Source: Lophium mytilinum
Lineage: Eukaryota; Ascomycota; Dothideomycetes; Mytilinidiales; Mytilinidiaceae
Assembly: GCA_010093605.1 (NCBI GenBank)
Contig: MU004196.1
Location: 522,255-586,254 of the forward strand
Length of the DNA: 64,000 nucleotides
Direction of reading: 5' to 3'
Below, piece by piece: positions 6,427-62,954 of the stretch (position 1 is its first letter; each line of letters opens with the position of its first letter). Made by a program: the position numbers and the translations under genes. Under the pieces are notes generated by a model, which was not told the origin of the DNA, did not search any database, and saw only the letters and a program-made list of their open reading frames with translations.

Positions 6427-7691
6427 ACTGCTTAGCGATGCAGGATGACGCGCACAGCGGGCGGAGAGTATAGGGGATATGGCGTCGAAGGTATTGAAGG
6501 TGTGGTTGTTGAGGGTGAAGGGTTGGCGGTGATGTTGGCGGTGTTGTAAAGACGAGGGTGATTCTTCGTGGGAAGATTATATTTAGGTAAATGGAAATCG
6601 AAACCGACAGCGCAGAGGGTGATTGGCTAATCTTAAACTTCACCTTGGATAGTGGCATGAGTATAGGTACCGAAGGTATAAACTCGGCTGAACGATTCTC
6701 CGACCGCTACGAGTGGCTGGCTCAATTTCAACGACCACTCTTCTTTTGAACACCGTGTCCCTTCCGAAATGAACTCTTCAGATGCCGCCTCTTTCAACGC
6801 TTGCTCGCCTAAGTAGACTTGTTGATAGGCATGCAAGAGAACATCTAGGCTTCGACTTCCCGTTCACTCCGATGCCGCTCGCCTTAATTTTACTTGCTTG
6901 TTTACCTAATTTGAAGCGATGTACTTGAAATTAAAATATCAGAATCGTAAGCTGTACGAATTCTTAGCTATGGCTGGTCACCAGCTGTCCACTACCTTTA
7001 ATCAACTTAGCTATAAGACGCATAGCGCGTATCAAAGTCACGTTATGGACCGCGTTAGAAACCGCGTTAAAACCAGTAGTCGGAACTGCATTAAGGCCAA
7101 CGTCAGGGACCGCGGTAGGGACCGCGTTATGAACCCTTTCAGAAGCAGTCCAGGTCAGGCGCCTCAAGATTGAGTCGTAAGCGTAGTTCTAGACTACGCG
7201 GGAACACCTAGTAAATATTCGCATTAGTGTAGCACGGTGGGCTTATGAGTTAAGAGAGAACACGGAACTTAGTACGTTGCGAGATTGTCGGGGGTTATAA
7301 CCTAGGTTATGATTACTTATCGAAATCCAACGACAGGGGGGCCTGCGCAGGCAAGGATGCGAGTTGTTGGACAAACTTCTGATTCGATCCTTCGGATCGT
7401 TAGACACTACTATCCAATCGTTAAACCCGTTCGTAGTCGGTATGTCCGCGATTTGGGCCTCGTACGCGTTGACTCACCATCCTATAGGCGTCTCGGTGTG
7501 TCGGGTATCCGTGAGAATCTCCTAGAACGGGTTAGATCATTTGATGCCAGTAAATCCGAGTCACCGATTGGGTCGTCTTGAAGAGTAAATATAGGCAGGT
7601 CCGGGGGGTTAATCGCAATGAAGAGGTATAAGAAGCTGCTCGAAAGGACCGTTTTATTGATTCCGACCTCACCTCAGTGCAACCTTCCAAG
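6427..7691. other. 1.26 kb divergent intergenic region
   Basis: Lies between the starts of the F-box/ankyrin gene (minus) and the dehydrogenase gene (plus), so it should hold both promoters. No gene-like frame was recognised. A degenerate short tandem repeat is present near 7049-7135 (separate entry). Confidence 0.5.
7049..7135. repeat. degenerate ~12-bp tandem repeat
   Basis: Units of the type ACCGCGTTAGAA, ACCGCGTTAAAA, ACCGCGGTAGGG and ACCGCGTTATGA recur within about 90 bp, the middle units decayed. Only a decayed microsatellite-like tract is supported. Confidence 0.5.
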
Positions 7692-8654
7692 ATGGCCTTC
7701 CCCTTCCCAACCTTCACCACCCCCTTCCACTCCACCGTTTACCCCTCCATCTCCCCCACCAACCCCTCCCTATCTGCGGCCAAAAAGACCATCCTCATAA
7801 CTGGCGGCGGATCCGGCATTGGAAAAGCCATCGCCATCGCTTTCGCTACGGCAGGCGCTCGCGCTGTGATCATCCTCGGCCGAAGCTCGTCCACTCTCTC
7901 CGCCGCCTCGGGCGAGATCTCCGCGGCAGCGACAGCATCTGGACACGTGACGGCGGTCAAATCCTTCGTCGCTGACATTCGTGACGCGACCGCTGTGTCC
8001 AATGCTGTTAAGAGTGTGCGAGAGGAGTTCGGCGGGATAGACGTCTTCGTCGCCAACGCAGGAGATCTCTACATGAGCACCATCGAGAACGCCGTTGCGG
8101 AGGACTGGTGGCGCAGTTTCGAGACCAACGTGAAGGGAACGCTGAATTGCATGCAGTCCTTCGTCCACCATGGCCTCAAGCCAGCTGCCGAAGGAGCACT
8201 CCCACCAACTTTCATCAACGTCGCTACGATTGCGGCGCATATCCCCCCGGGATTCGGCATGTCCGCGTACTCTTCGTCGAAATTGGCGACTTGGAAGATG
8301 GCCGCGTATCTGGATGCTGAGATGGGTGACAGGCTGCGGGTGTTCACGATTCATCCGGGGAATGTGGCGACGGCGATGAGTGACAAGGCGGGGACGCCGC
8401 AGTTGGATGATGCTAGTATGTTTACCTTCTTCGTGTTCTCTTATCAATCAAGGCCAATTTCAGCCTATAGAAGCTAACGAGTTGAAGCATTACCCGGGGG
8501 CTTTTGTGCCTGGCTTGCTGCAACGCCTGAAGCGGATTTTCTACGTGGGAGGTTTATTTCCGTCAATTGGGATGTTGAGGAGTTGTTGAGGAGGAAAAGT
8601 GAAATCGTGGAAAAGAACATGCTCTCTATGGAGCTTTCTGGTTGGGGCGCTTGA
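7692..8654 (+). CDS. short-chain dehydrogenase/reductase (SDR)
   Basis: Exons 7692..8415 and 8488..8654 join to 296 residues. The 72-bp intron runs from GTATGT to a TTGAAG acceptor with a GCTAAC branch site; the joined C-terminus reads LPGGFCAWLAATPEADFLRG, the normal end of fungal SDRs. The Rossmann motif TGGGSGIG (~residues 37-44), the NAG motif after DVFVA, and the YSSSK active-site pair (Tyr and Lys four apart, with the upstream Ser in NVATIA context) are all visible. It would use NAD(P)H to reduce a carbonyl or oxidise an alcohol; the substrate cannot be told. Length matches the classical SDR class with a short N-terminal extension. It is followed by a 560-bp gap and an unrelated plus-strand gene. 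Confident as an SDR, not as a specific enzyme. Confidence 0.92.
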
Positions 8655-9218
8655 TTAGAAGTCCGGGTGGACGATGCATCAATTACTAGATAACTATCGG
8701 GAATGGAGCTACAATGAAAGCTGTTGCGCATCTGCATGATTTCCAGGAGGTGGCTGTGCACGTGTGGCTCAAATTCATGTACCACTTTCCGTTCAACGAA
8801 GCTTTCCAGGGATACCTAAGTAGCTGGTTGGAAATGCCCGGCCCATTTTCAAATCTCCGAACCTCTCCACCACATCAAGTCGTGTTCATCTCCCCCGGTC
8901 AATGGACTTTGTCCGCCAGGCCGCTGCTATGGCAGGAATCTTCGATGATTCACAGACCTTTGATGACTCACTTGGCCGGTACCAACGCCGATGCGATGAC
9001 TCTACTCAATCGCGTGCTCAGCCTCAATGGCTTCTTACTAGTTTACAGATTTTCAAATCTATTCTAAAGCTTCGTATACCTTGATACACGCTTACTTCAG
9101 GCTTCCGTGCACTCTTAGCAACGCTTGAGGTCCTCTGGCTCGCTATCAAACATCATAAAACGACGTTTTCGGCACGGTTGAAAGCTCTTCGAGCCATCTC
9201 AATCATTGTTGAACCGCT
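8655..9218. other. intergenic, 564 bp
   Basis: One 117-codon plus-strand frame (8714-9067) has no recognisable domain and unconvincing composition. I see nothing else here; the 3' end should hold the promoter of the next gene. Confidence 0.45.
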
Positions 9219-11213
9219 ATGGCCTTCCGCCTCGATTCTAGAGCAACAGCCGTTGCTATCATTCCACCGCCGCATCTCCACAGCTCCATCAACGACATTC
9301 GCAGCGTACACGATAAGAGCCACAACACTTGGCCACCCCATGTCAACATTCTGTACCCTTTCGTACACCCAGAGAAGCTCTCAGATGCTGTGCAGCTGCT
9401 TCGAAGTAGCCTAGAGATCAGCGATGTCTGCCTCAACATCGCAATCGCCGACGCTGGCTTGTTTCGACATCGCAAAAACGCCACTGTATGGCTGAAGCCT
9501 GCGCAGCATTCGGAAGATGCATTGAGACTACTTAGGAAAAAGCTCACCGGAGCTCTTGGGTGTGAAGAGCGCGAGGGAACGCATACCGGCGAATATACCC
9601 CTCATCTTTCTGTCGGGCAAAGTGCATTGAACGACGCCGTTATTGCGAAGCTTACCCAGAAGGCCGCAAAGCTCGCGGGCTTGGAGTGGCAGTGTCAGAG
9701 TCTGGTAGTTTTGAAGCGCGAACCGTCTGGGGAGATGAGCATTGTGGAGGAACTGCCCTTGGGACCTGAGTTCTCAGCTCTACCTCCAACGCCAGACCTC
9801 AAGACTCCGAGGCAAGATTCTGAATGGCGAACATGCCACTCTTTCACGCCCGAGTGCGGGTGGACGCGATCATTCTGGCATAAGAAGCCCGCAGCGTCAC
9901 CAGCTTCAGTGGAACCGAACGCCAAAGTTACCATTTCGTCTTACAATGTCATGACAGCACCATATGCCCCGTCGTTAGACCTTCGATTCCCACTCATTGT
10001 CGATGCAATCTCATCAATACCCTTCTCCTCGTCAGTCACGGTGCTTTGTCTACAAGAGGTGAGCGCAGACATATTACCGCTGCTACTCTCCGACCACTTC
10101 ATTCAAAAGTCGTACCCTTACTCAACGCACCACCCCTCGACACACCTCCCAAGTCAACGCAATCTGGTTATCTTAGCATCAGTACCGTTTACGCACCACA
10201 AGCTTGAATTTGCGGAACACCACAAGTCCGCCTTGATTGCCGACTTTGGCAATCTCGACTTCCAGGTAGCGAACGTACACCTGACAAGCGCGTTGACGGA
10301 CAAATCAGTCCTAGCGAAAACTAACCAAATGCATTTATTGACAAAATTCATCAAACGAGGCGCCAGCGGCAAGGAGGTCTTTGTGATTGGAGATTTCAAT
10401 CTTACGACATCAGTGAGAACAGTCAAGACGGCTCTCGAAGAACGGCTCATCACGAAGAAGACCGCACGACTGTTGCGAGGCGTTATCGACACGAGCCTCT
10501 GGGCCGACGTGTACGAGAGTGTCAATGCGCAGGCATTGAAAGATTCCTTTGACGCTGATACGGAAGGAGAAGAGGGCGCCACTTTCGACCGAATGACAAA
10601 CAAACTGGCCGCGATGTCCAAAGGGTTGATCGACAACCGACCACAGCGCTACGACAGACTGCTCCTCCGCAAAGGGGGACGGTCACAGGCGGAAAGTTTC
10701 CTAACGTTTGGACTACCAGCTAGTGACGGGACTTGTGCCAGTGATCATTACGGAATCACGGCAACGGTCAATATGCGGCCCACCGACGCTGAATCCGACC
10801 TCAAGGCGCCAGGTGTGGTTGCAACGAATAGAGACGGCACTATTCCACAAGACGTTCGTCTCAATGATCGGCAAGCCAGCGAGGACCCCTTCGCTGAACA
10901 TTCGATACCCCAACTGTCCGCGTCATCGTCAAGCTCCGAGAAACCTGTGATAAGGCTTCGAAAACTTCCTCCCGCACAAGACATCATCTCTCGCATCCGC
11001 TGGGACCCGTCTTTATCTGTCTCTGATTTTGTGGTAGGGTACTCCGACCGTTTCGTCGGCGTCAAGGAAATCGACCTGGTGAAGTGGAAACTGGAGACCA
11101 CGCATCTGGAGTTCATCCCCATGCACCGCGTGATGTGGATAAGACGGAAAGGAGATGGTGGAGAAAAGGTGTGGGATCGAGTTGAGAGGAGGATGACACT
11201 GGGCATGAATTGA
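9219..11213 (+). CDS. 2H phosphoesterase - EEP nuclease - MJ1316 fusion protein
   Basis: Single exon, 664 residues, three domains in order. Residues ~1-180 are a 2H (LigT/2'-5' RNA ligase-like) phosphoesterase with both motifs, H41-V-N43 in WPPHVNILYPF and H129-L-S131 in YTPHLSVGQ. Residues ~233-512 are an endonuclease/exonuclease/phosphatase (EEP) domain with SSYNV, the metal Glu in LCLQEV, VANVHLTS, VIGDFNL and SDHYGI. Residues ~576-660 are an MJ1316 (DUF504) domain (LPPAQDIISRIRWDP, then VGYSDRFVGVKEI and IPMHRVMWIRR), proposed in the literature to recognise RNA ends with cyclic phosphate. The set points to RNA-end processing or repair, probably 2',3'-cyclic phosphate. As I recall, related fungal proteins also carry a poly(A)-polymerase-like nucleotidyltransferase between EEP and MJ1316; here only ~64 low-complexity residues join them. 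Domain calls are strong; role is inference. Confidence 0.9.
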   Translation: MAFRLDSRATAVAIIPPPHLHSSINDIRSVHDKSHNTWPPHVNILYPFVHPEKLSDAVQLLRSSLEISDVCLNIAIADAGLFRHRKNATVWLKPAQHSEDALRLLRKKLTGALGCEEREGTHTGEYTPHLSVGQSALNDAVIAKLTQKAAKLAGLEWQCQSLVVLKREPSGEMSIVEELPLGPEFSALPPTPDLKTPRQDSEWRTCHSFTPECGWTRSFWHKKPAASPASVEPNAKVTISSYNVMTAPYAPSLDLRFPLIVDAISSIPFSSSVTVLCLQEVSADILPLLLSDHFIQKSYPYSTHHPSTHLPSQRNLVILASVPFTHHKLEFAEHHKSALIADFGNLDFQVANVHLTSALTDKSVLAKTNQMHLLTKFIKRGASGKEVFVIGDFNLTTSVRTVKTALEERLITKKTARLLRGVIDTSLWADVYESVNAQALKDSFDADTEGEEGATFDRMTNKLAAMSKGLIDNRPQRYDRLLLRKGGRSQAESFLTFGLPASDGTCASDHYGITATVNMRPTDAESDLKAPGVVATNRDGTIPQDVRLNDRQASEDPFAEHSIPQLSASSSSSEKPVIRLRKLPPAQDIISRIRWDPSLSVSDFVVGYSDRFVGVKEIDLVKWKLETTHLEFIPMHRVMWIRRKGDGGEKVWDRVERRMTLGMN

Positions 11214-11819
11214 GAGCCCTCAAACCGGAATCTAAGTACGATCGCCTCCGGAAAGCATACTATTTGTGAGTCGTGAACTGGATAGCTTCCAAAAATTTGC
11301 TGAGTAAATGATTTAGGTACGAGTCATTAGCTTTACCGGGGGTATATGTGCAGTATTGATCATGAGTTTACGCATATGGGTATACTATTGCTCGAGCGCC
11401 GCCGAGGAAAGGTGCCCGACCCTCACGTCAGTGGCATGTCTCACCCGTTGTACATATGCTCATTCATGTCCAAAGCGTAGCTCCGTTATTTGGCTCTTTA
11501 TGCCAAGCTTCACAATGTCAACCATGGATCATTTGAACCACTGCGACTTGGAACAAGCAGTGAGGCTAACCTCCTGTAATATAATCTAGCTTGATTCGCT
11601 TACGCCATCCCATGGGAAGAAGTAGAGCTTTCCAAAGCTCGTGGTAATCTAGACTAAAAAAATGCCACGAAGCCTGAATAGTCTGCACATCTCAAATTTC
11701 ACCAGTTGCCAACGCCTTCGAGTTTAAAGTGATTGGCTTCTATTTCTTCGGGCTATGATCCTACGCAAGTCGGATTTTCAGCATATATTTCTCTTCACGA
11801 AACCCAACGAGCGCTCGAC
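11214..11819. other. intergenic, 606 bp
   Basis: No gene recognised. It follows the stop of the 2H-EEP-MJ1316 gene and precedes a same-strand small gene; it should contain the terminator of the first and promoter of the second. Confidence 0.4.
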
Positions 11820-12408
11820 ATGTGAGTTTCGTACATGCCCACAAGCATTTGAACAATCAAACTCATAAAGAACGTTCCCTAGGACCGAACCTCGCTTCAT
11901 CCCCTCACGACTCCCACGGCTCCCAGTCGAGATATTTACCGACTACTGCAAAAGATACCCAGCCCTCTCCACCTCCACACTTGAGAACTTCGCATTCGCG
12001 CTTCTCAACGCGCACGAGACGCGCAGAGCGCACGGTTCTCTGGATGTTCCCGAAAGCGGGCTGGACGAATGGGTCATGACCTGGCTGCAGCACTGGGACC
12101 CTTGGCAGGGGGAAAAACCCGCTGGCGAACGAACCGCCTACCTAGCGTGGCGGCGAACGCCCGAGGGCGTTGAAGCCATCGCGAAGCGACCGCAGGCGTT
12201 TTACTATCCCCCGGTTTTGCGCTTCGCGGATCTGGAGGATGCTAGGGAGACTTGTTCACGGTCTCATAAGACTATTATGGAGTTTGTGGATAGGATGGTG
12301 GATGATAGGGCGAATATGGATGCGTGGCCAGTGAAGTTGAGAGAGAGGTTGAAGCTTGAGAGGGTCTTTGAGAGGGATCCTGGGTTTTTGGGGTGGGCTT
12401 TTAGATGA
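11820..12408 (+). CDS. hypothetical protein with an intron-split start codon
   Basis: The open frame 11883..12408 begins with G-ACC-GAA; an intron GTGAGT(11822)...CCCTAG(11882) joins it to AT at 11820-11821, so the ATG itself would be assembled by splicing (2 + 526 nt, 175 residues, starting MTEPRFIPSRLPRLPVEIF). Composition is natural across the whole frame: a Pro/Arg start, then DYCKRYPALSTSTLENFAFA, then WQGEKPAGERTAYLAWRR, and a charged helical C-terminus ending in PGFLGWAFR. No family is recognised, and no signal or membrane segment is visible. If the split start is wrong, the next in-frame ATG is at 12076 (110 residues), which would discard ~64 protein-like residues. The branch site is weak. 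Real gene likely; start uncertain. Confidence 0.6.
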
Positions 12409-13072
12409 GTTTGAGGGGGGGAAGTCGGCGATTCATTGGTTGGTTCGAGTGCTTCTAGGACACGGCAACGAACTATCGGAATGGTAAAAGGAGGTTCACG
12501 GGATGGTGGTGGGAGGATGTAGGGCTTGTTTTGATTCTTACTGTACTAAGCTTCGAGTTTAGGCGCACGGGTATATAACTGTTCTAGCTTCACTCTTGTT
12601 CTCTCGACATCACTGTGAGGAGTATTTAGGCACCGTGTTAGATACTAGTCGAGAGGTAGTCTAATCTGCGCTGCGTTGATATTCACATTGTATTTGGAGT
12701 GTTCGAAGCTTGTCGGGGTGCCTCAGATAGTTGCAAAGAGTACCCAAGCTTATGCCTTAGACTTTAGTACAGTAGCAATACTAGAGAATTGAGACTTAAC
12801 ACTAGAAACTTATTTCATAATCATATATGTGCAGTAGAAGATTGCACTCTATGCAATACATTGATTCGAGTATTGAGGGCATCGGTCAAGTGATTGATGT
12901 GGGAGGTGACGTGTGGGAAGTTTTAGGTCGCATATTAGACACTTGCTCACCGCCGTGAAGACTGTACAGGCGGAACTGGGCATTCATCATATGATAACGC
13001 ACCTCGAGCAGGTTGTAGCCGCATAGTGGTGTCAAATGCCGTCGTGTTAGTCCGTCAAGACCACCATGTGCA
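12409..13072. other. intergenic, 664 bp
   Basis: AT-richer tract between two convergent genes. No gene, repeat or RNA structure was recognised. Confidence 0.45.
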
Positions 13073-14847: not shown

Positions 14848-16878
14848 ATGGCGACGCGAAGGGACATCCAGGACATTATAGGCCTACCTGGCGGCGGAGA
14901 CACGCCCGCACCCAAGAAGCGCGCGAAGACTGCTGGACCACAGAAGAAGCTGCGTATGTTCAATACCACGCCTAACTGCGGAGAACGACATACTAATCCG
15001 AATGAATATCTATAGATGGCGTAAATCGCGAAGTCGCAGCGCTCTACGGCGAACGCCCTCCTCCGGTAGCTGTCTATGAGGAGAAAAAGACATACAGGGC
15101 CAAGCGGGCGAATTTGGGGCCAGTGAGGCCATGGTAAGAAATACACAATATGTATGCGCTTCCAGCTAGGTGCTAATTGGGTCCAATGTAGGATACAACA
15201 ACCTTTCACGAATCCAGCCCGCACCGATGGCCTCGTACTCAAGCATTGGAGGCGCAAACCCACGGCACGCCCAAATATCGAAAATGGCGGGGACACTGCA
15301 ATGGAGGATGCGGACAACCAGTCGCCACAACTTGAGACGGACTACGAGTACGCGCGATTCAATGTCGATGTGTCAGTTCCCTCCTACACCGACGAAGAGT
15401 ACGAGGCACACCTCCGTAGCAATGAGTGGAGTCGAGAGGAAACGGATTACCTCCTGGAACTGGCCAAGGACTTCTATCTGCGATGGCCGGTCATCCATGA
15501 CCGCTACGAATTCCAATCCGCAAAGGCTGAGCCCGCCGATGATGCCGCGTCTGCAGGAGATAGCATACTCGAGAATCCCACCGATGCCCTCTCTACCCTT
15601 CCGTACAACTCCAGCTTGCCCCGCGATCCTCGCTCCATCGAAGACCTCAAAGCGCGGTACTACTTTGTGTGGGAAACGACGCTGAAACTCCACCGACCGC
15701 CCGAGGCCATGGAATCCAGCGAATTCGAACTCCTCGAAGTGCTGCACAGCTACAACCCCGACTCCGAACACGTGCGCAAGCGGATCGCGCTCGCCCTCAT
15801 GAGCCGTCCGCTCGACGAAGTCAAAGAAGAAGAGTTCCTCCTCGCCGAACTGCAGCGCATCAACATCGCCGCCAACCGCCTCGACGCCGAGCGCGCCGAA
15901 CTCCGCGAACGCCTGGAAGCTCCCACCCCCCAGCGCGATCTTGGCCCAGCAGGGCCCTTGGGAAACTTCCAGTCCTCGCAAGCCCTGACCGCCCTCTTCC
16001 AGCAGCTCTTCCAGCAAGACCGCTCCAAGAAGCGCGCCTCGGGCAGCGGCCGCCTCAGCCTCTCCGCCGGCGACATCATCGGCACCCCCACCGCCGCCCA
16101 GCAAGCCGCCTACAATGCCGCCGCCGGCAGCCGCAAGGCCAGCATGGCGCACCCACCGCCCCCGCAGCCGCAGCTGCGCGCCCTCTCCGCGGCCGAGGAG
16201 CGCCGCTACGGCGTCAGCAACCACGACCGCCTCACGTCTGGCGTCTCCTTCGGCTCTGACAAGCTCGTCAAGATGCGCCAGGCTAAGAGCGGCGTGCAGA
16301 CGCAGAAAATCGCTGCCGTGCTCGCCCAGCTTGGCTTTGGCGATATCATCACGATCCCTACGGCGCGGGTGGGCGCTGCGTTTGAGGGGCTGGTTGCGAA
16401 GGTCGGGAAGCTGCTCGATCTGCGGAAGGTGCGCGAGAAGGAGGAGAATGAGGTCAAGGTGCTGGATGGCATGCGGGCGAAGCGAGCGGGCGAGGATCCT
16501 GCGGCTACCGGTTCTGCGCCGCCGCAGCATGGCCGCGATAGCACGGAGACGCAGGAGCGCGATATGAAACAGGAGGAGCGCGATGAGAGCTTGATGGAGC
16601 AGTCTATAGCGGACTCGACTGTAGGGGCCGAGACAACCTATGCGGAGGATGGAGAAGGGGGGGATGATGCCGAGGGAGAGGAGGACGATGCGGAGGGCGA
16701 GGAGGACGCGGATGGCGAGACGAATGCGACAAGTACGAGGCAGGTTTCTGAGGCAGTTAGTACGAGAGCTGCGACGACTCCAGCAGCGTCTGTGAAGGCG
16801 GGGCATAAGAGGAGTGCGAGTGTGCTTAGTGCGGGTAGTACTAGGAGTAGGGCGAGTACGAAGAGGGCGAGGAAGTGA
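14848..16878 (+). CDS. SWC4: SWR1/NuA4 complex subunit Swc4 (DMAP1 homologue)
   Basis: Exons 14848..14953, 15016..15133 and 15192..16878 give 636 residues. Donors are GTATGT and GTAAGA, acceptors TATAG and TGTAG. The order of parts matches Swc4/DMAP1: an N-terminal segment (RRDIQDIIGLPGG, then GVNREVAALYGERPPPV), the linker KANLGPVRPW-type motif split by intron 2, then a SANT/Myb-like domain around residues 125-170 (SNEWSREETDYLLELAKDF then RWPVIHDRYEF). The middle has a helical DMAP1 region (RLDAERAELRERL) and the C-terminus is acidic and Ser/Arg-rich. By family knowledge it is shared by the SWR1 remodeller (H2A.Z deposition) and the NuA4 acetyltransferase, and acts in the nucleus. Codon use becomes very GC-rich between 15.7 and 16.4 kb, which creates a 514-codon shadow frame on the other strand. 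Confidence 0.93.
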
Positions 16879-48855: not shown

Positions 48856-51249
48856 TCAGGTGCCGTACGGACCTCTGCCAAGCATGTACTTTAGACTAAG
48901 GGGAGCGAAGTCCTGGTTCCCTGTAGACGAGGAATGGTAGATTGGGAATGTTTGCCCAGAGAAAGATTCCTCATCCTCCACGACGGAGCTATTGACTGCG
49001 AGTACGTGTCGATGATACAACTCAGTGCTCCCCTTAACATCCGGTAAGCCACGCTGAAGATCCGACAGCGACGCCTCAACTCCAGCAAATTTAAGGTCTT
49101 GTTCTGTGCTTCCCGAACTGTACGACCTGGACTGTGAGGGTATGCTGGTGTATGTCGCCGTGCCGTTCTGGCGATTTACGGTCGTCGTGCCCGAAAAGGG
49201 GGACAGGTTCGGATGGATCGTTTCTTCGAAACCAAAAGTCTGTAGACCGGATGGGAAAGCTAGCTGGCCTAGCGTCTGCACATTCTTGCTACGATCAATT
49301 GAGGCGCCGATGGTGAAAGCGTCATCCGGATAGAAGGCGTAAGCTGTGGTTGCCCATAGAGGATAGTCATACGCTCTGGAGTAACCCAAGGACGACAAAT
49401 CTACGCCCTTTGTACTTTGGGTGTTGATTTGTAAGTTTCCGCCATCGCTGTAATTTCCTTGGTTCGAGAATGTCAAAGTCTGTTGCCACGAAGCAACACG
49501 ACTGCCTTCAGACGTCTTGATCGTTGAGCTAAGAGAGAGGTGTCGTTGGACCTGGACGGAATATTCCAGGGTGACGTTGGTACCGTTGGGGAGGGACGAC
49601 ACCGATGATGATATGTGCAGGGCAGGGTGCGGGTCGATCCGGACAAGATTAGAGCCTGTGGTAATCCAATCGCTTGCATCAAGCCACAAGAAAATCTTGC
49701 CAGTCACGACCCAAGATGCCCCGACCGTGTTTGTCAGACTTCCATGACCGTACCCGTCGTCGCTGATCCCTGCAACTCTTATCTCAAAAGTATGCTCATC
49801 TCCGTCGCAGAGCACAGGTAGGAACGCCGAAACATCAATCTCGTCCTCCCGGAGATCAAACGCGTCGATGCCCACGACCGGGCGCCAGAATCCAGGATCC
49901 ACGCCTCCTGTAAAGATGACTGGGAATGGCCAGGCCACCCCCGCTAGCATGCCGTCGATATAGAGCTGAGTTTCGCGGAATGGCGAGTACCCCGAGAGCT
50001 CCATTGCAGGGAACGTCAAAAGATTGGAAGAAGGGACGTTGCCCCACCAGAACTCTTCTGCTGCTTGTCCGCAAGCTGAAATGGAGAAGACCGCCTTCTT
50101 GACATTTCGGGGAAGTGTGAGGGCATTTGTGGCATTTTGACCGGGTAGACTGAAGGCGCTCGGGGCATTGTTGGCTGACTGCCTTGCAGAAATCGGTATG
50201 ATCACGTCCGCAGGTGCGCTAGCGACATTATCGGTGAAGAACGTGGCCGTCAAAGTCGCGTTGAAGGAAGCGGTGTATATTTCATTGACGAGATTTCCGA
50301 GGTCAAAAATGATCTTCTGTGGCTCTTTGAACAACACGAGAAAGTTCGTCATGTCTTTAATGTAAGTCCACTCAATTCCGGTCGCCGTAGGCTCCGCTGT
50401 CGAAGTACGAAATACTTCGGTGTCGTTGAAGTACATCAGTCCAAGACGATCGAATTGCCGTCCCGCAGAGACAACCGTAAAATTGAACGTGACACGATTG
50501 AAGTCGCATGAAGGAGGAGAGTACTCGCCTAATACATTTAGGTTAGCAATGACCGCCGTACTCGCACTCAACGAAGGCATGCGTCCACGCTGGGCATGAA
50601 AAAGTGGCACACTCATCAAGATCTATCTTTTGCGGTCGTGTGTAAACCTGTCTGCCACTGCTTGGGGTGCTTCAATAGGTTTCTAGATAGCCTAAAGCTA
50701 AAAAAAAATCTACCTCTCTTACATTTCCAAAGGTGTATTAAAGCACCCCAAACAGCGGCAGACAAGTGTATAAGAGGCAGATGCGGGTTGAGTGTGCCCC
50801 CTTTTTCATGTCCCGCGTGGCGTGTCTGCCCAATGGTCTTACAGCACACGGGCTAAAGCGAGGCACGAAAACATGGGATGCTTTCGAGAACAAAAGGAAT
50901 GCAAGATAATCGAGAAGATGTGGCGAGAGTTGTTCTTCCACTCACCAACGAAAGGCTTTCCATAGCTGAACGCGAACGAGTGCACCATAAGCGTTTTCTC
51001 ACAGGGCGCGTCTTCAGGGCTCAGTACCGGAGGCGAAACTTGGAAAACATCCAGAAATGATGAAGATTGGTTGCTTGCGCGGCCAGCAAGCATCCTATGT
51101 GGCAGGAGACCACGGTATTCGGATGCCGATGACGGTGATGCGAGGACGTGAAATGAAAGAGTCATTAGCATTATGATAGTGCAAACCAGCGGTCGAAATA
51201 CGTTGGCCGCGCGTAGCTGCTGGTGCTTTGCTGCTCTGATATGCCCCAT
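48856..51249 (-). CDS. peptide N-glycosidase A family (PNGase A)
   Basis: Exons 51249..50946 and 50528..48856 give 658 residues. The start MGHIRAAKHQQLRAANVFRP precedes a hydrophobic segment (LVCTIIMLMTLSFHVLA), probably a signal or anchor. The joined junction reads KPFVGEYSPPSCDFNRVTFNF, the conserved start of the PNGase A fold; continuing motifs include GRQFDRLGLMYFNDTEVFR, TATGIEWTYIKDM and PQKIIFDLGNLVN. Known function: releases N-linked glycans from glycopeptides by cleaving the Asn amide; likely secretory or vacuolar. The 417-bp intron (GTGAGT..TTAG, GCTAAC branch) contains a MITE-like element. Exon 2 frame stays open back to an ATG at 50619 inside that element, a false start. Confidence 0.9.
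50529..50945 (-). other. 417-bp intron of the PNGase A gene
   Basis: Donor GTGAGTGG (at 50945 going down), acceptor GTATTAG before 50528, with GCTAAC ~15 nt earlier. Joining restores VGEYSPPSCDF. Most introns in this window are below 150 bp; the excess is explained by the MITE-like copy B inside it. Confidence 0.85.
50581..50823. mobile_element. MITE-like foldback element, copy B, within the PNGase A intron
   Basis: Arms of ~95 bp are near-perfect inverted repeats. Inner ends: TGTCTGCCACTGCTTGGGGT (from 50650) against the complement of ACCCCAAACAGCGGCAGACA (ending 50764). Outer ends pair CACGCTGGGCATGAAAAAG with the complement near 50800-50820. The middle is AT-rich. Same family as the copy at 4414-4686 (shared TGTCTGCC arms and AATAGG/ATAGCC middle). 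No coding capacity. Confidence 0.8.
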
Positions 51250-58483: not shown

Positions 58484-61400
58484 TCAAAGATCGACCTTGA
58501 TTATAAGAACGTATCCCGAGTAACATCCAACAGCAATATTGTTGTTGCAGACAGCCACTACATCGTCCCCAGCGAAGGATATGTACTCGTGTGGAAGGCG
58601 AAGGACAGGCTTCCCCTTGAAGACAAGCCATTCATTTTCTACTGATAAATCAGATCGAAGGTATTGTTCGTCAAGAGGTTCATTCGGGAACGCAACTGCG
58701 CTGACTTGTGAAGGATTGCATGCTACAGTGTCGATGAGCGCGTCGAGTGTGTGTAGCAGCGTGCCCTTGGTCGCGTCCAAAACCCGTACTGTGGAGTCCC
58801 ACGAGCCCGACGCCAGCTTCGGGCCGTCCCCGACCCGCGAGAACGCAACCGCCAAAACTCCTTCAGAATGGCCCTCAAGCGTGTGCTTCAGCGTGCCCTT
58901 TGCCGCGTCCCAGACCCGCACTGTGTTATCTCTTGAGCCCGACGCCAGCATTGAGCCGTCCCTATCCTGCGAGAATGCAACTGCCAAGACTGATGAAGAA
59001 TGGCCGCAAAGCGTGAACAGCAGCTCGCCTGTGGCCACGTCCCAAACCCGTATTGTAGTGTCCTGCGAGCCCGATGCCAGCTTCAAGCCATCCTGTGAGA
59101 ACGCAATATCGTTTACTCTATAAGAATGGCGGTCAGGCGTCTGCTGCACCGTGCCTATTGGTGCGGTCATGTCCCAGACCCGCACCGTTTTGTCTTGTGA
59201 ACCCGATGCCAATTTCAAGCCGTCTCGTGAGAACGCAACTGCGAGGATGAATGAAGAATGGCCGTAGAGCGTGTACTGTAGCGTGCCCGTGGCTACGTCC
59301 CAGACCCGTACTTCCTCTTCACTCGACGCCAGCTTCGAGCCGTCCCACGAGAACGCAACTGCGGTTAATCGCACCGAATGGCACTTAAGCGTGTGTTGTA
59401 GCGCGCCCGTGGTCGCATCCCAGACCGTTATTGTCCCGTCAATTGAATTTGACGCCAGCTTCGAGCCGTCTCGCGACAATGCAACCCTGTTACCCAGTAC
59501 AAAATCGCCCTTGAGTGTGTGCTGAAGCGTGCCCTTGGCCACATCCCAGACCCGCAGTATCTTGTCTGATGAAATGGATGTCAGCGTTAAGCCGTTCTGT
59601 GAGAACGCAACCGCTTGAAGTCTCTTGGAGTTGTCGGTAGCTCTAAGTGTGTGCTGTAGCGTGCCATTAGCTGCGTCACAAATCCCTACCTCCCCAAGAG
59701 ACAAACCCCACGCTAGAATCGAACCATCCGGTGAAAACGCGAATACATTAGCTGTAGCGATATCGCTGTCATGTGTGTACTGCAGCGTGCCCGCGGCCAC
59801 GTCCCAAACCCGCACCGTCTTGTCGCTTGAACCTGATACAAGCTTCGAGCTATCAGATGAAAATGCGACAGCCCCAACATATTGTCCATGGCCATGAAGC
59901 GTCTGCTGTAGCGCGCCTGTAGCTGCGTCCCAGATCCGCACTGTCCTGTCGAGCGAACCCGATGCCAACAATGAGCCGTCCTGCGAAAAAGCAACCGCGC
60001 TCACGGATGAACCATGGCCCTCGAGCGTCTGTAAGCACGCGCTCCATTCATCTGATAAAGAGGAGTGAACTGTAATCCCCTTTGGTGTTTCCTGCTTGAA
60101 GTAACTTCTTATCAGGCTGCGAACCGGACTAAATACGAGCGCAGACGCGTATGCCTGGAGAGGACTGGTCTCTATTGCCACCTTGTGGTACATGATAAAT
60201 CGGTATGCATCGTGAACCAATTCGAGTAATCTGGATGCGTCTGTTCTTGTCTATATAATCTTAGTATACGTTACGCTTGAAGGCTAGAAGAAGCATACTT
60301 TGAGGAGAGATTCGAGTTTCGCTACTGATGCCGCCCCTTCTGACATGCTCCTGCAAAGGCTTAAAGCCTCGAGCCAGTAAAGATACTGCTCTTGGAGGAA
60401 AACATGCACGGCGCCACCGTCTTGCAGATATCTGTCCTCTTTGATACTCTTGTCGGAAAGAGAATTACAGAGGTGGTCAATCCAGTAGACGCATGAGTAC
60501 CGCGACGTCTCTAACGGGTCATTGGTTGGCACTTGGACTTTGTCGATCGGGAAGCCTGGTTCGTTTAAGGAGTACATGTCACGTTTCAGTGTATCAGACA
60601 TGAGCTCCAGAGATCGAATATAGATATCTTGGTGGGTCTTCTCCTGAGATGAAAAGAATGTAGCTCGCGCCTCATCGCTTAGGTAGTCCTTAGCCGATTG
60701 ATGGATTAGGTAGACTTGATCCTCTTGCACAGTAAGAAATGAGCCGCACATGTCTACGGTCTCTTTTACAATATCTTTCGATACTCCACACAAGCTACCT
60801 ATCTCAGATAGGTGAAGTGGACGATAGGCGACGGTGGCAATGGAAAGCATGAGCTTGCAAACCTCCGAGATACTCGCCTTACGCTGTTGGATCTGATCCA
60901 CCATGCGATCGTACAGATGGACTAAGCCTTCTGGCACATCTGACACCACTTGTAACGGTTTCAAGCTCTCAGGACTCTCGAGCTCCTGGATTACGAAGGC
61001 GGCCCAGAGGAATGTGCCATTCGCCTTCTGGCGTAGGATGTCTCGTACTTCATCTCTTAAGCTGTTGTCTTGGAGTGCCCTTGTACGGGGCAGCTTATCG
61101 TCGATATAGTCGTCGACGGCTTGAGACACCAGTTTCGCGTTTTCCTGCAGCTCGAGATTCAGCCTTATCAGCTTCTTAGCAGATCCTAGTTCCTGCTTTA
61201 TTAGGACCTCGTTCCGACTTGTTAAGAGCCATTTTATGCGGGAGGGTGGCGACGAGGTGTCGATAATGAGTTTTAGCAGCTTCCGCAGGTCGATAATACA
61301 TTCATCCAGGGCGTCGACGACGAGGCAGGTCATCTCCAGGCTCGGGTCCCGTAGTATATTCCCAAAGATCTCTGATAGAGCGACCCAAGAATTTGCGTCT

Positions 61401-62954
61401 TCGAAGAGTGCTTTGCCTGCGCTGTCGTACTGCTTCCGGAGGTGTGAGGCTAGCGATGGATGTTGATCAGCGAGTAGGTAAATCAGACCGCGCAGAACAG
61501 CTGTGGCACTATTGATACGCGAGTCGGTGGCTTGACAGAAGAAGAAGGACACAAAGCCACAGCCGGTTGACTTCTTTAGTTCGTCGAGAATCCCACAGAG
61601 CAGCATGGTCTTGCCCTTGCCCGGATCGGCGCTAATCCAGAGCAGTGTCCCTTCTGGGCCATCTTGCCATTGCTTGAGCTGAGGACTGTCGAGGATCCAG
61701 CGACAAGATTCACGCAAAATACCGCCTTTGGCCTGCTCAATACGTGTCTTGTCGTGGCGGGAATCGGTGGCCCGGAGGTCTCTCAAGCACTGTTCATCTT
61801 TCTTTTTCTCCTCATCTTCCTTTGATTGTTCATCTCGCTTTGATTGTCCATCATTCTGTGATCTTAGGTTTGCGACAATCCGCTCGCCGGTATAGGCCTT
61901 GCGATGCAGTTCAAAGCGTTTCTCAGCATCCCGGATAGCTTTCAGATTGCCGTCCCAGTCATCAAGCTTGACAATGTCCCGTAAGAATTCGAGACCACGA
62001 TGACGATAGTATGAGTAGACGCTCTTAATTTGGTATGTGAGAAGTACTTTATAAAGATCTACAATCTGATTTTCCAGCTGGTATCTCACTTCAGAAAGTT
62101 CCCTGGCATCATCTGTAGATTCCTGGAGAAGGCTACTGAACAGGCTGCAGTACCAATTCATGTTTTTGATAACGTATTCAACGCCTTGGCGGTTGGTTTC
62201 GGTTGCCTTGATGGGATTGGCAAGCATCTCCGGCAGTCAGCATGCGAAAATATCATTATGTAGACAAACTTACCTCCAAGGCAATGCAAACGCCGGTCCA
62301 GGGTAGGGCAGCTTGGGGCGCGACCCCAATAGCGGAACTGATTATATCCCTGGCTATTAGGACCGGGCCCATAGTGCGGCTCATGCCTTCTTTCATTTTA
62401 GCCTCCGGTGCGGTCTTGTCGAGACCGGTATAGACAAGCTGCTCCATTTGATGTCGCCTTTCGTCTGGGTCACTCTGGCAGATGTTATTTGCCTGGTGCT
62501 CCGGTTCAGTAGAGGCACCCCTGTCCTTCTGCAAATTGTGAGACAAAATCCTTTCGTATTCGTCCAGGAGGGCCGGCTCCTTTTCTTTGAGGTCGTCGTA
62601 GGCTCGATCCCAGAGTCGCTCGGACGGGCTTGCAGTACGAGTGACATTCGCGTGTGTCGACCCATCGCCAGAGGTAGCCGCTCGAGCATTTGGGAGCGGC
62701 GAAGCGGACGTAGAGGTGGCAGTGGGTCCTTGTAGGAGGGGCGATATAGACTCGAGTAGAGTAGCAGGTAGAGGAACGCCTATGGTGGTTGTAGAGTTTT
62801 GCATAGCATCTTCGGAGGTCGTCAGCACGACAGAGGTGCCAGTCGTACTTGCTTGTACAGCGAGCTGGGTTCGTTCTTTGTGTTTTTCCCGACCTGTCAT
62901 GCCGCGACCTATTCGCGGAAGCCACTTCCGCCAGCATGATGATCGTTCCGGCAT
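58484..62954 (-). CDS. NACHT-WD40 NLR receptor (HET-E/NWD-type)
   Basis: Exons 62954..62274, 62227..60299 and 60250..58484 give 1458 residues; introns are 46 and 48 bp. The start MPERSSCWRKWLPRIGRG is the usual form; an earlier ATG at 63125 exists. The N-terminal region has the NACHT-associated helix block (SPSERLWDRAYDDLKEKEPA). The NACHT domain carries P-loop ADPGKGKTMLL (~residue 423) and Walker B-like CLVVDALDEC (~526), then winged-helix-like SDVPEGLVHLYDRMVDQI. From ~940 come ten WD40-type repeats (unit HSSxxLAVAFSxDGxxLASGSxDxTVRVWD), several almost identical, and a degenerate C-terminal blade. By family knowledge this is a STAND receptor in heterokaryon incompatibility or defence; its WD repeats often vary by recombination. 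No paired effector gene is adjacent. Confidence 0.93.
58700..60040 (-). repeat. tandem WD40-coding repeats within the NLR gene
   Basis: Ten ~126-bp units (about 42 codons each) encode the propeller. By eye units 7-10 are the most alike, sharing GHSxSVLAVAFS and LASGSxDxTVRVWD. Units 3-6 are more worn, and the last blade is degenerate. The repeats lie at 59.98-58.70 kb going down the minus strand. Confidence 0.7.

What the first reader, a model, noticed from the sequence alone, without database searches (positions are those of the whole stretch)
9219..11213. Single-gene 2H phosphoesterase, EEP nuclease and MJ1316 fusion without a nucleotidyltransferase
Both HxS/N motifs of the 2H fold, all main EEP motifs and a full MJ1316 domain sit in one 664-residue chain. 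The set suggests handling of RNA 2',3'-cyclic phosphate or 2'-5' linked ends. As I recall, related fungal proteins also carry a poly(A)-polymerase-like domain between EEP and MJ1316; here only ~64 low-complexity residues join them, so this may be a streamlined RNA-repair protein.
Basis: partly seen in the sequence, partly recalled or inferred. Interest (0 to 1): 0.72.

Follow-up and report, generated by a model that had tools for sequence, protein, structure and literature searches.

The report
Shortened copy of RNA-end repair enzyme
This gene encodes a three-part protein that probably cleans up damaged RNA ends; the same genome also holds a longer four-part relative that carries, in addition, an enzyme domain for adding nucleotides.

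Summary
Window 9219-11213 (+) is one open frame of 664 codons. Pfam finds 2H phosphoesterase (3.9e-27), MJ1316 (1.8e-17) and a sub-threshold EEP match (0.0047). Both 2H His motifs and the EEP catalytic residues are in place. No nucleotidyltransferase (NTase) is matched in the protein, and no remnant was found in window 8001-13000. New here: the genome has one other MJ1316 match at E up to 0.001. That gene encodes the full 2H-EEP-PAP nucleotidyltransferase-MJ1316 protein (1211 aa model). The copies share 32% identity over 2H-EEP and 57% over MJ1316, so the duplication looks old. The EEP resembles TDP2 most: 11 of 14 rows in a PDB profile search, weak E-values, and 44 of the 50 fold rows shown. 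ANGEL2, an RNA 2',3'-cyclic phosphatase, scores nearly as well by Z. Best reading: an RNA end-healing protein without its own tailing activity. Function is inferred. No other fungal genome could be compared, so the spread of the short form is open. A variant of a known kind, of moderate interest.

The parts
9219..11213 (+). Whole gene, single exon, 664 aa: 2H - EEP - MJ1316 protein
9264..9722 (+). 2H phosphoesterase domain (residues 16-168)
   Evidence: Pfam PF13563 3.9e-27; weak match to solved 2d4g with both His motifs aligned (E 0.0014)
9339..9347 (+). First 2H motif H41-V-N43
   Evidence: paralogue has H-I-N
9603..9611 (+). Second 2H motif H129-L-S131
   Evidence: paralogue has H-L-T
9918..10781 (+). 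EEP domain (residues 234-521), nearest to TDP2 among solved structures
10392..10400 (+). EEP catalytic D392-F-N394
10743..10748 (+). EEP catalytic D509-H510
10782..10970 (+). Linker (residues 522-584) where the paralogue has about 530 residues with the nucleotidyltransferase; Ser-rich, low model confidence, no NTase remnant found
10971..11180 (+). MJ1316 (formerly DUF504, recalled) RNA cyclic-end recognition domain, residues 585-654
   Evidence: Pfam PF04457 1.8e-17; 57% identical to the paralogue's

Best explanation
The gene makes an intracellular RNA end-healing enzyme. MJ1316 holds an RNA end that carries a 2',3'-cyclic phosphate. The 2H domain opens the cyclic phosphate (or a 2'-5' bond). 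The metal-dependent EEP domain then removes the remaining phosphate or another blocking group, leaving a plain end for ligation or degradation. It is an old paralogue of a four-domain enzyme in the same genome that can, in addition, probably tail the healed end with its poly(A)-polymerase-like nucleotidyltransferase; this copy heals without tailing. Shown: the domains, the motif residues, no detectable NTase, the paralogue. Inferred: substrates, order of steps, division of labour, cellular location.
For: Domains and curated cut-offs. Catalytic motifs kept in both copies despite only 32% identity. Differences between the copies are fewest at codon position 2 and most at position 3 (207 against 359 in 515 codon pairs), as expected of genes kept for their protein. 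MJ1316 described as recognising RNA 2'-3' cyclic ends, with diverse eukaryotic fusions to RNA-repair domains (PMC6514570, passages). An EEP enzyme, ANGEL2, hydrolyses 2',3'-cyclic phosphate to OH ends (PMC13247085, passages), and its structures are among the closest by Z (19.1 and 19.0 against 20.2 for the best TDP2). The paralogue's NTase motifs G-S-Y-G, S-D-I-D and R-M-D are present, with PAP_central at 5.1e-17.
Against: No activity, expression or localisation data. The EEP domain resembles TDP2, an enzyme of 5'-tyrosyl ends, more than ANGEL2 by sequence. The first 2H motif has Asn for Ser/Thr. The models behind the fold searches have low confidence (mean pLDDT 46 and 52). The NTP_transf_2 match of the paralogue is below its cut-off (17.4 against 21 bits), so the tailing activity of that copy rests on PAP_central and motifs. 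The genome already holds Trl1-type and Tpt1-type genes, so the need for this protein is not obvious.
Confidence: 0.55

Rival explanations
1. The EEP domain works like TDP2: it strips covalent adducts (for example tyrosyl-linked proteins) from 5' ends of RNA or DNA, while 2H and MJ1316 deal with the 3' end, so the protein decontaminates both ends of a nucleic acid.
For: All 11 rows with E up to 1 in phmmer of the paralogue's EEP are TDP2 (best 0.14); 11 of 14 rows with E up to 10 for the two-sequence profile, best E 0.0034; Foldseek rows 1-36, and 44 of the 50 rows shown, are TDP2 chains, many from the same few entries. TDP2 is also known as VPg unlinkase, acting on RNA (PMC7077319, start of abstract in the search listing).
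Against: E-values are weak and the window's own EEP found no TDP2 row at E up to 10. By Z a bacterial EEP (19.5) ties with the best TDP2 (20.2) and ANGEL2 is 1.1 below. The genome has two separate TDP2-like genes, L018 and L020; the profile of this EEP scores L020 weakly (8.9 bits) and L018, the one tested against TDP2 structures, no better than unrelated EEP genes (0.5 bits).
Confidence: 0.2
2. It degrades rather than repairs: the 2H domain and EEP act as 2'-5' phosphodiesterase and 3' nuclease to clear oligonucleotides with unusual ends.
Against: MJ1316 fusions are discussed in an RNA-repair context; the EEP profile lists no CCR4-type chain at E up to 10.
Confidence: 0.15
3. A decaying duplicate that lost the NTase and is on the way to becoming a pseudogene.
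For: Lacks a domain that its paralogue keeps; EEP scores below the Pfam cut-off.
Against: Open frame over 664 codons, the catalytic motifs kept after divergence to 32% identity, coding-like codon usage over four of five segments, linker included.
Confidence: 0.08

Closest known systems
Fungal 2H-EEP-poly(A)-polymerase-MJ1316 protein (here G000:C15, L003:2018-5767)
   Same: Same order of 2H, EEP and MJ1316; 32% identity over 2H-EEP, 57% over MJ1316; same catalytic motifs, including Asn in the first 2H motif
   Different: The window protein lacks the roughly 530-residue region with the nucleotidyltransferase
TDP2 (tyrosyl-DNA phosphodiesterase 2)
   Same: Nearest EEP in PDB by profile and by Foldseek; N, E, D and H of the metal site (human N120, E152, D262, H351 in PMC11369425, passages) have counterparts N243, E280, D392, H510 by motif order (inferred)
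   Different: First motif SYN; fused to 2H and MJ1316; weak E-values; separate TDP2-like genes exist in the genome
ANGEL2 (EEP-fold RNA 2',3'-cyclic phosphatase)
   Different: Not listed in the sequence search at E up to 10; ANGEL2's own domain make-up was not examined here
Trl1-type fungal tRNA ligase
   Same: Contains a 2H-type cyclic phosphodiesterase for healing (established knowledge)
   Different: No ligase or kinase domain found here; a Trl1 CPD domain is encoded elsewhere, on contig C8

Membership tests
2H phosphoesterase superfamily | Two H-x-(S/T) motifs in the bilobal fold | tested here: met
   PF13563 3.9e-27; H41-V-N and H129-L-S; Asn in the first motif is a departure, shared with the paralogue; the fold of this domain was not tested
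EEP superfamily | Four-layer fold with N, E, D-x-N, S-D-H metal site | tested here: met
   Motifs; fold matches over residues 231-521 of a low-confidence model; Pfam below cut-off for this copy but above for the paralogue
MJ1316 domain (PF04457) | Score above the curated cut-off | tested here: met
   64.2 bits against 26.3
Four-domain 2H-EEP-NTase-MJ1316 enzyme | Poly(A)-polymerase-like nucleotidyltransferase between EEP and MJ1316 | tested here: not met
   No NTase family in 664 aa at E up to 1; no remnant by tblastn in window 8001-13000. Met by the C15 paralogue through PAP_central
TDP2 | Closer to TDP2 than to other EEP families | tested here: inconclusive
   Sequence and Foldseek ranks favour TDP2, but the next EEPs lie only 0.7-1.1 below in Z, the window EEP alone gave no TDP2 row, and the genome's TDP2-like L018 is no closer than other EEP genes
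ANGEL2 / CCR4-type EEP | Sequence kinship and active-site loop of ANGEL2 | tested here: inconclusive
   Among top folds, not listed in the sequence search; the active-site loop was not examined
RNA repair enzyme (function) | Activity on RNA 2',3'-cyclic phosphate or other damaged ends | not testable with these tools
   needs biochemistry

The most novel reading that the evidence does not exclude
The family is a two-ended RNA decontamination machine: 2H and MJ1316 heal the 3' end while a TDP2-type EEP domain removes protein or other adducts from the 5' end. The three-domain form is a stably kept, tail-free version that works beside the four-domain tailing enzyme, so that healed RNAs are sent to different fates.
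Probability: 0.12. Interest if true: 0.68.

Novelty: new variant of a known kind. Interest (0 to 1): 0.36.

Why it matters
RNA repair of damaged 3' ends in fungi is usually discussed around Trl1 and Tpt1 (recalled). A pair of paralogues that differ cleanly by one catalytic module, one probably able to tail and one not, would be a natural experiment on why healing and nucleotide addition are coupled. The TDP2-like EEP suggests a substrate range that I have not seen considered for MJ1316 proteins (only the papers named here were seen).

Tried and rejected
Hidden NTase in the linker: rejected. A first tblastn with the paralogue's second exon used the wrong reading frame; it was redone with the spliced frame.

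Relatives elsewhere: viral contigs with P0001 matched no pattern. Genome contigs (bacteria and archaea) with the EEP profile and with the MJ1316 profile gave 35 and 66 pattern matches, none confirmed; since MJ1316 domains are known in archaea (control genomes), that scan was not sensitive enough to count relatives. No fungal genome collection is held, the window's genome has no relatives in the genome search (text) and no metagenome scan was allowed, so orthologues could not be counted and no tree or selection test was made. I did not name the organism.

Solved structures: the full protein gave 2d4g for the 2H domain (E 0.0014) and seven GABA-B receptor rows over part of the EEP (E 0.068 or weaker); the window EEP alone gave only seven GABA-B receptor rows (E 0.026 or weaker). 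I regard these receptor rows as chance.

Fold search: 2H and MJ1316 were not tested by fold, since the EEP filled the list. NCBIfam gave three rows, all below their cut-offs.

Papers: Burroughs and Aravind 2016 (recalled as describing MJ1316 fusions) and Mazumder 2002 are not held. 'MJ1316' occurs in 2 held papers; DUF504 in none of the 25 papers listed of the 41 that hold DUF504 or LENG9; a six-term search asking for at least five terms found none. I found no paper on an NTase-less form in the listings, but this library cannot show that none exists.

Full report
Observation. Window 9219-11213 (+) is a single open frame of 664 codons, with an in-frame stop at 9210 just before the ATG. In 200 mononucleotide shuffles of 9001-11400 the longest open stretch in any of six frames was 211 codons against 666 here. 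Pfam reports three families at E up to 1: 2_5_RNA_ligase2 (residues 16-168, 3.9e-27), MJ1316 (585-654, 1.8e-17) and Exo_endo_phos (273-424, 0.0047, below its cut-off). No nucleotidyltransferase, kinase or ligase-catalytic family is among them.

Motifs. Both 2H motifs are present, H41-V-N and H129-L-S, and align with the His motifs of the Bacillus protein 2d4g in a weak match (E 0.0014). The EEP residues N243, E280, H354, D392, N394, D479, D509 and H510 are in place and are shared with the paralogue. Asn in place of Ser/Thr in the first 2H motif is common to both copies, so it is a feature of this pair and not damage to one gene.

The paralogue. The genome (43.2 Mb in 24 contigs) holds two MJ1316 matches at E up to 0.001, and only two loci resemble the window protein at E up to 1: itself and the C15 gene, which is matched in two parts. 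The C15 gene has 2H (1.6e-22), EEP (3.9e-9), PAP_central (5.1e-17) and MJ1316 (9.2e-21) in its exons. Its NTP_transf_2 match is below cut-off (17.4 against 21 bits). With two short introns it gives a 1211-residue model with 530 residues between EEP and MJ1316, carrying G-S-Y-G, S-D-I-D and R-M-D motifs. The intron model rests on splice consensus and frame only. Identity to the window protein is 32% over 595 columns of 2H-EEP and 57% over 76 columns of MJ1316. So the duplication looks old. Whether the window copy lost the NTase or the other gained it cannot be told here.

Is it a working gene? Between the copies 515 codon pairs of 2H-EEP differ at 274, 207 and 359 sites in codon positions 1, 2 and 3, and 81 MJ1316 pairs at 28, 27 and 53. 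A codon-usage score trained on six open frames of the genome, the paralogue among them, favours the reading frame over the whole gene (0.097 against -0.10 or lower in the five other frames) and over four of five segments; residues 191-233 are uninformative. This favours a kept gene but is no test of selection on this copy alone.

Within the genome, I compared the EEP profile with six of the seven other EEP places (L021 there is the paralogue itself; L022 was left out as a fragment, and L017 entered as part of its gene). Scores were L020 8.9 bits, L017 3.8, L023 0.7, L019 0.5, L018 0.5 and L016 -0.8. L020 and L018 are 38% identical to each other, and L018's best PDB match is a 5'-tyrosyl-DNA phosphodiesterase at 0.00017. 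So one TDP2-like gene comes first, weakly, and the other does not stand out: this result is mixed for the TDP2 reading. The labels CCR4-like, APE-like and nSMase-like in the script are mine, from appearance and recall.

Mechanism. MJ1316 is described as recognising RNA 2'-3' cyclic ends, with eukaryotic fusions to RNA-repair domains (PMC6514570, passages). 2H enzymes open such ends (established knowledge). ANGEL2 shows that an EEP enzyme can remove 2',3'-cyclic phosphate down to OH (PMC13247085, passages). TDP2 is reported in fungi but not in yeasts and in repair of DNA-protein crosslinks (PMC11369425, passages). I therefore think the window protein binds and heals RNA ends, with the C15 enzyme probably able to add nucleotides as well. 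The order of steps and the substrates are inference.

Context. The genome also encodes Trl1-type and Tpt1-type domains, a third 2H gene on C12 over the cut-off and a sub-cut-off match on C8, and a poly(A) polymerase candidate on C14 (PAP_central 3.7e-58). Ten of the long frames of the window were scanned with Pfam: an SDR lies upstream (7632-8474), and the two frames scanned next downstream gave no match at E up to 0.001. This gives no functional hint.

Verdict. The gene is an NTase-less paralogue of a fungal RNA-end enzyme of recalled, known kind whose full form sits in the same genome. It is a variant of a known kind; interest would rise if the short form proves to be conserved and to act on 5' ends.

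Noticed in passing
window 60287-62236 (-): NACHT NTPase with NPHP3_N and NACHT_N domains (Pfam 2.5e-35, 3.8e-34), a fungal NLR-like protein (label recalled); a further long frame 58487-60250 (-), not scanned, lies next to it.
   Followed up: no
window 48859-50622 (-): Peptide N-glycanase A-like protein (PNGaseA 1.8e-130).
   Followed up: no
window 15127-16875 (+): SANT/Myb-like domain of Pfam's DAMP1 type (PF16282, 8.3e-27).
   Followed up: no
L018 and L020 (G000:C1:3805405-3806181, C5:2155257-2155985): Two standalone TDP2-like EEP genes, 38% identical to each other, in the same genome (PDB match tested for L018 only).
   Followed up: partly
L003:2018-5767 (G000:C15): Full 2H-EEP-PAP-MJ1316 gene, 1211 aa model with two introns.
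   Followed up: yes
L005 (G000:C12:784186-784623): Standalone 2H protein in a 267-residue open frame, with H-L-T and H-W-T motifs.
   Followed up: partly
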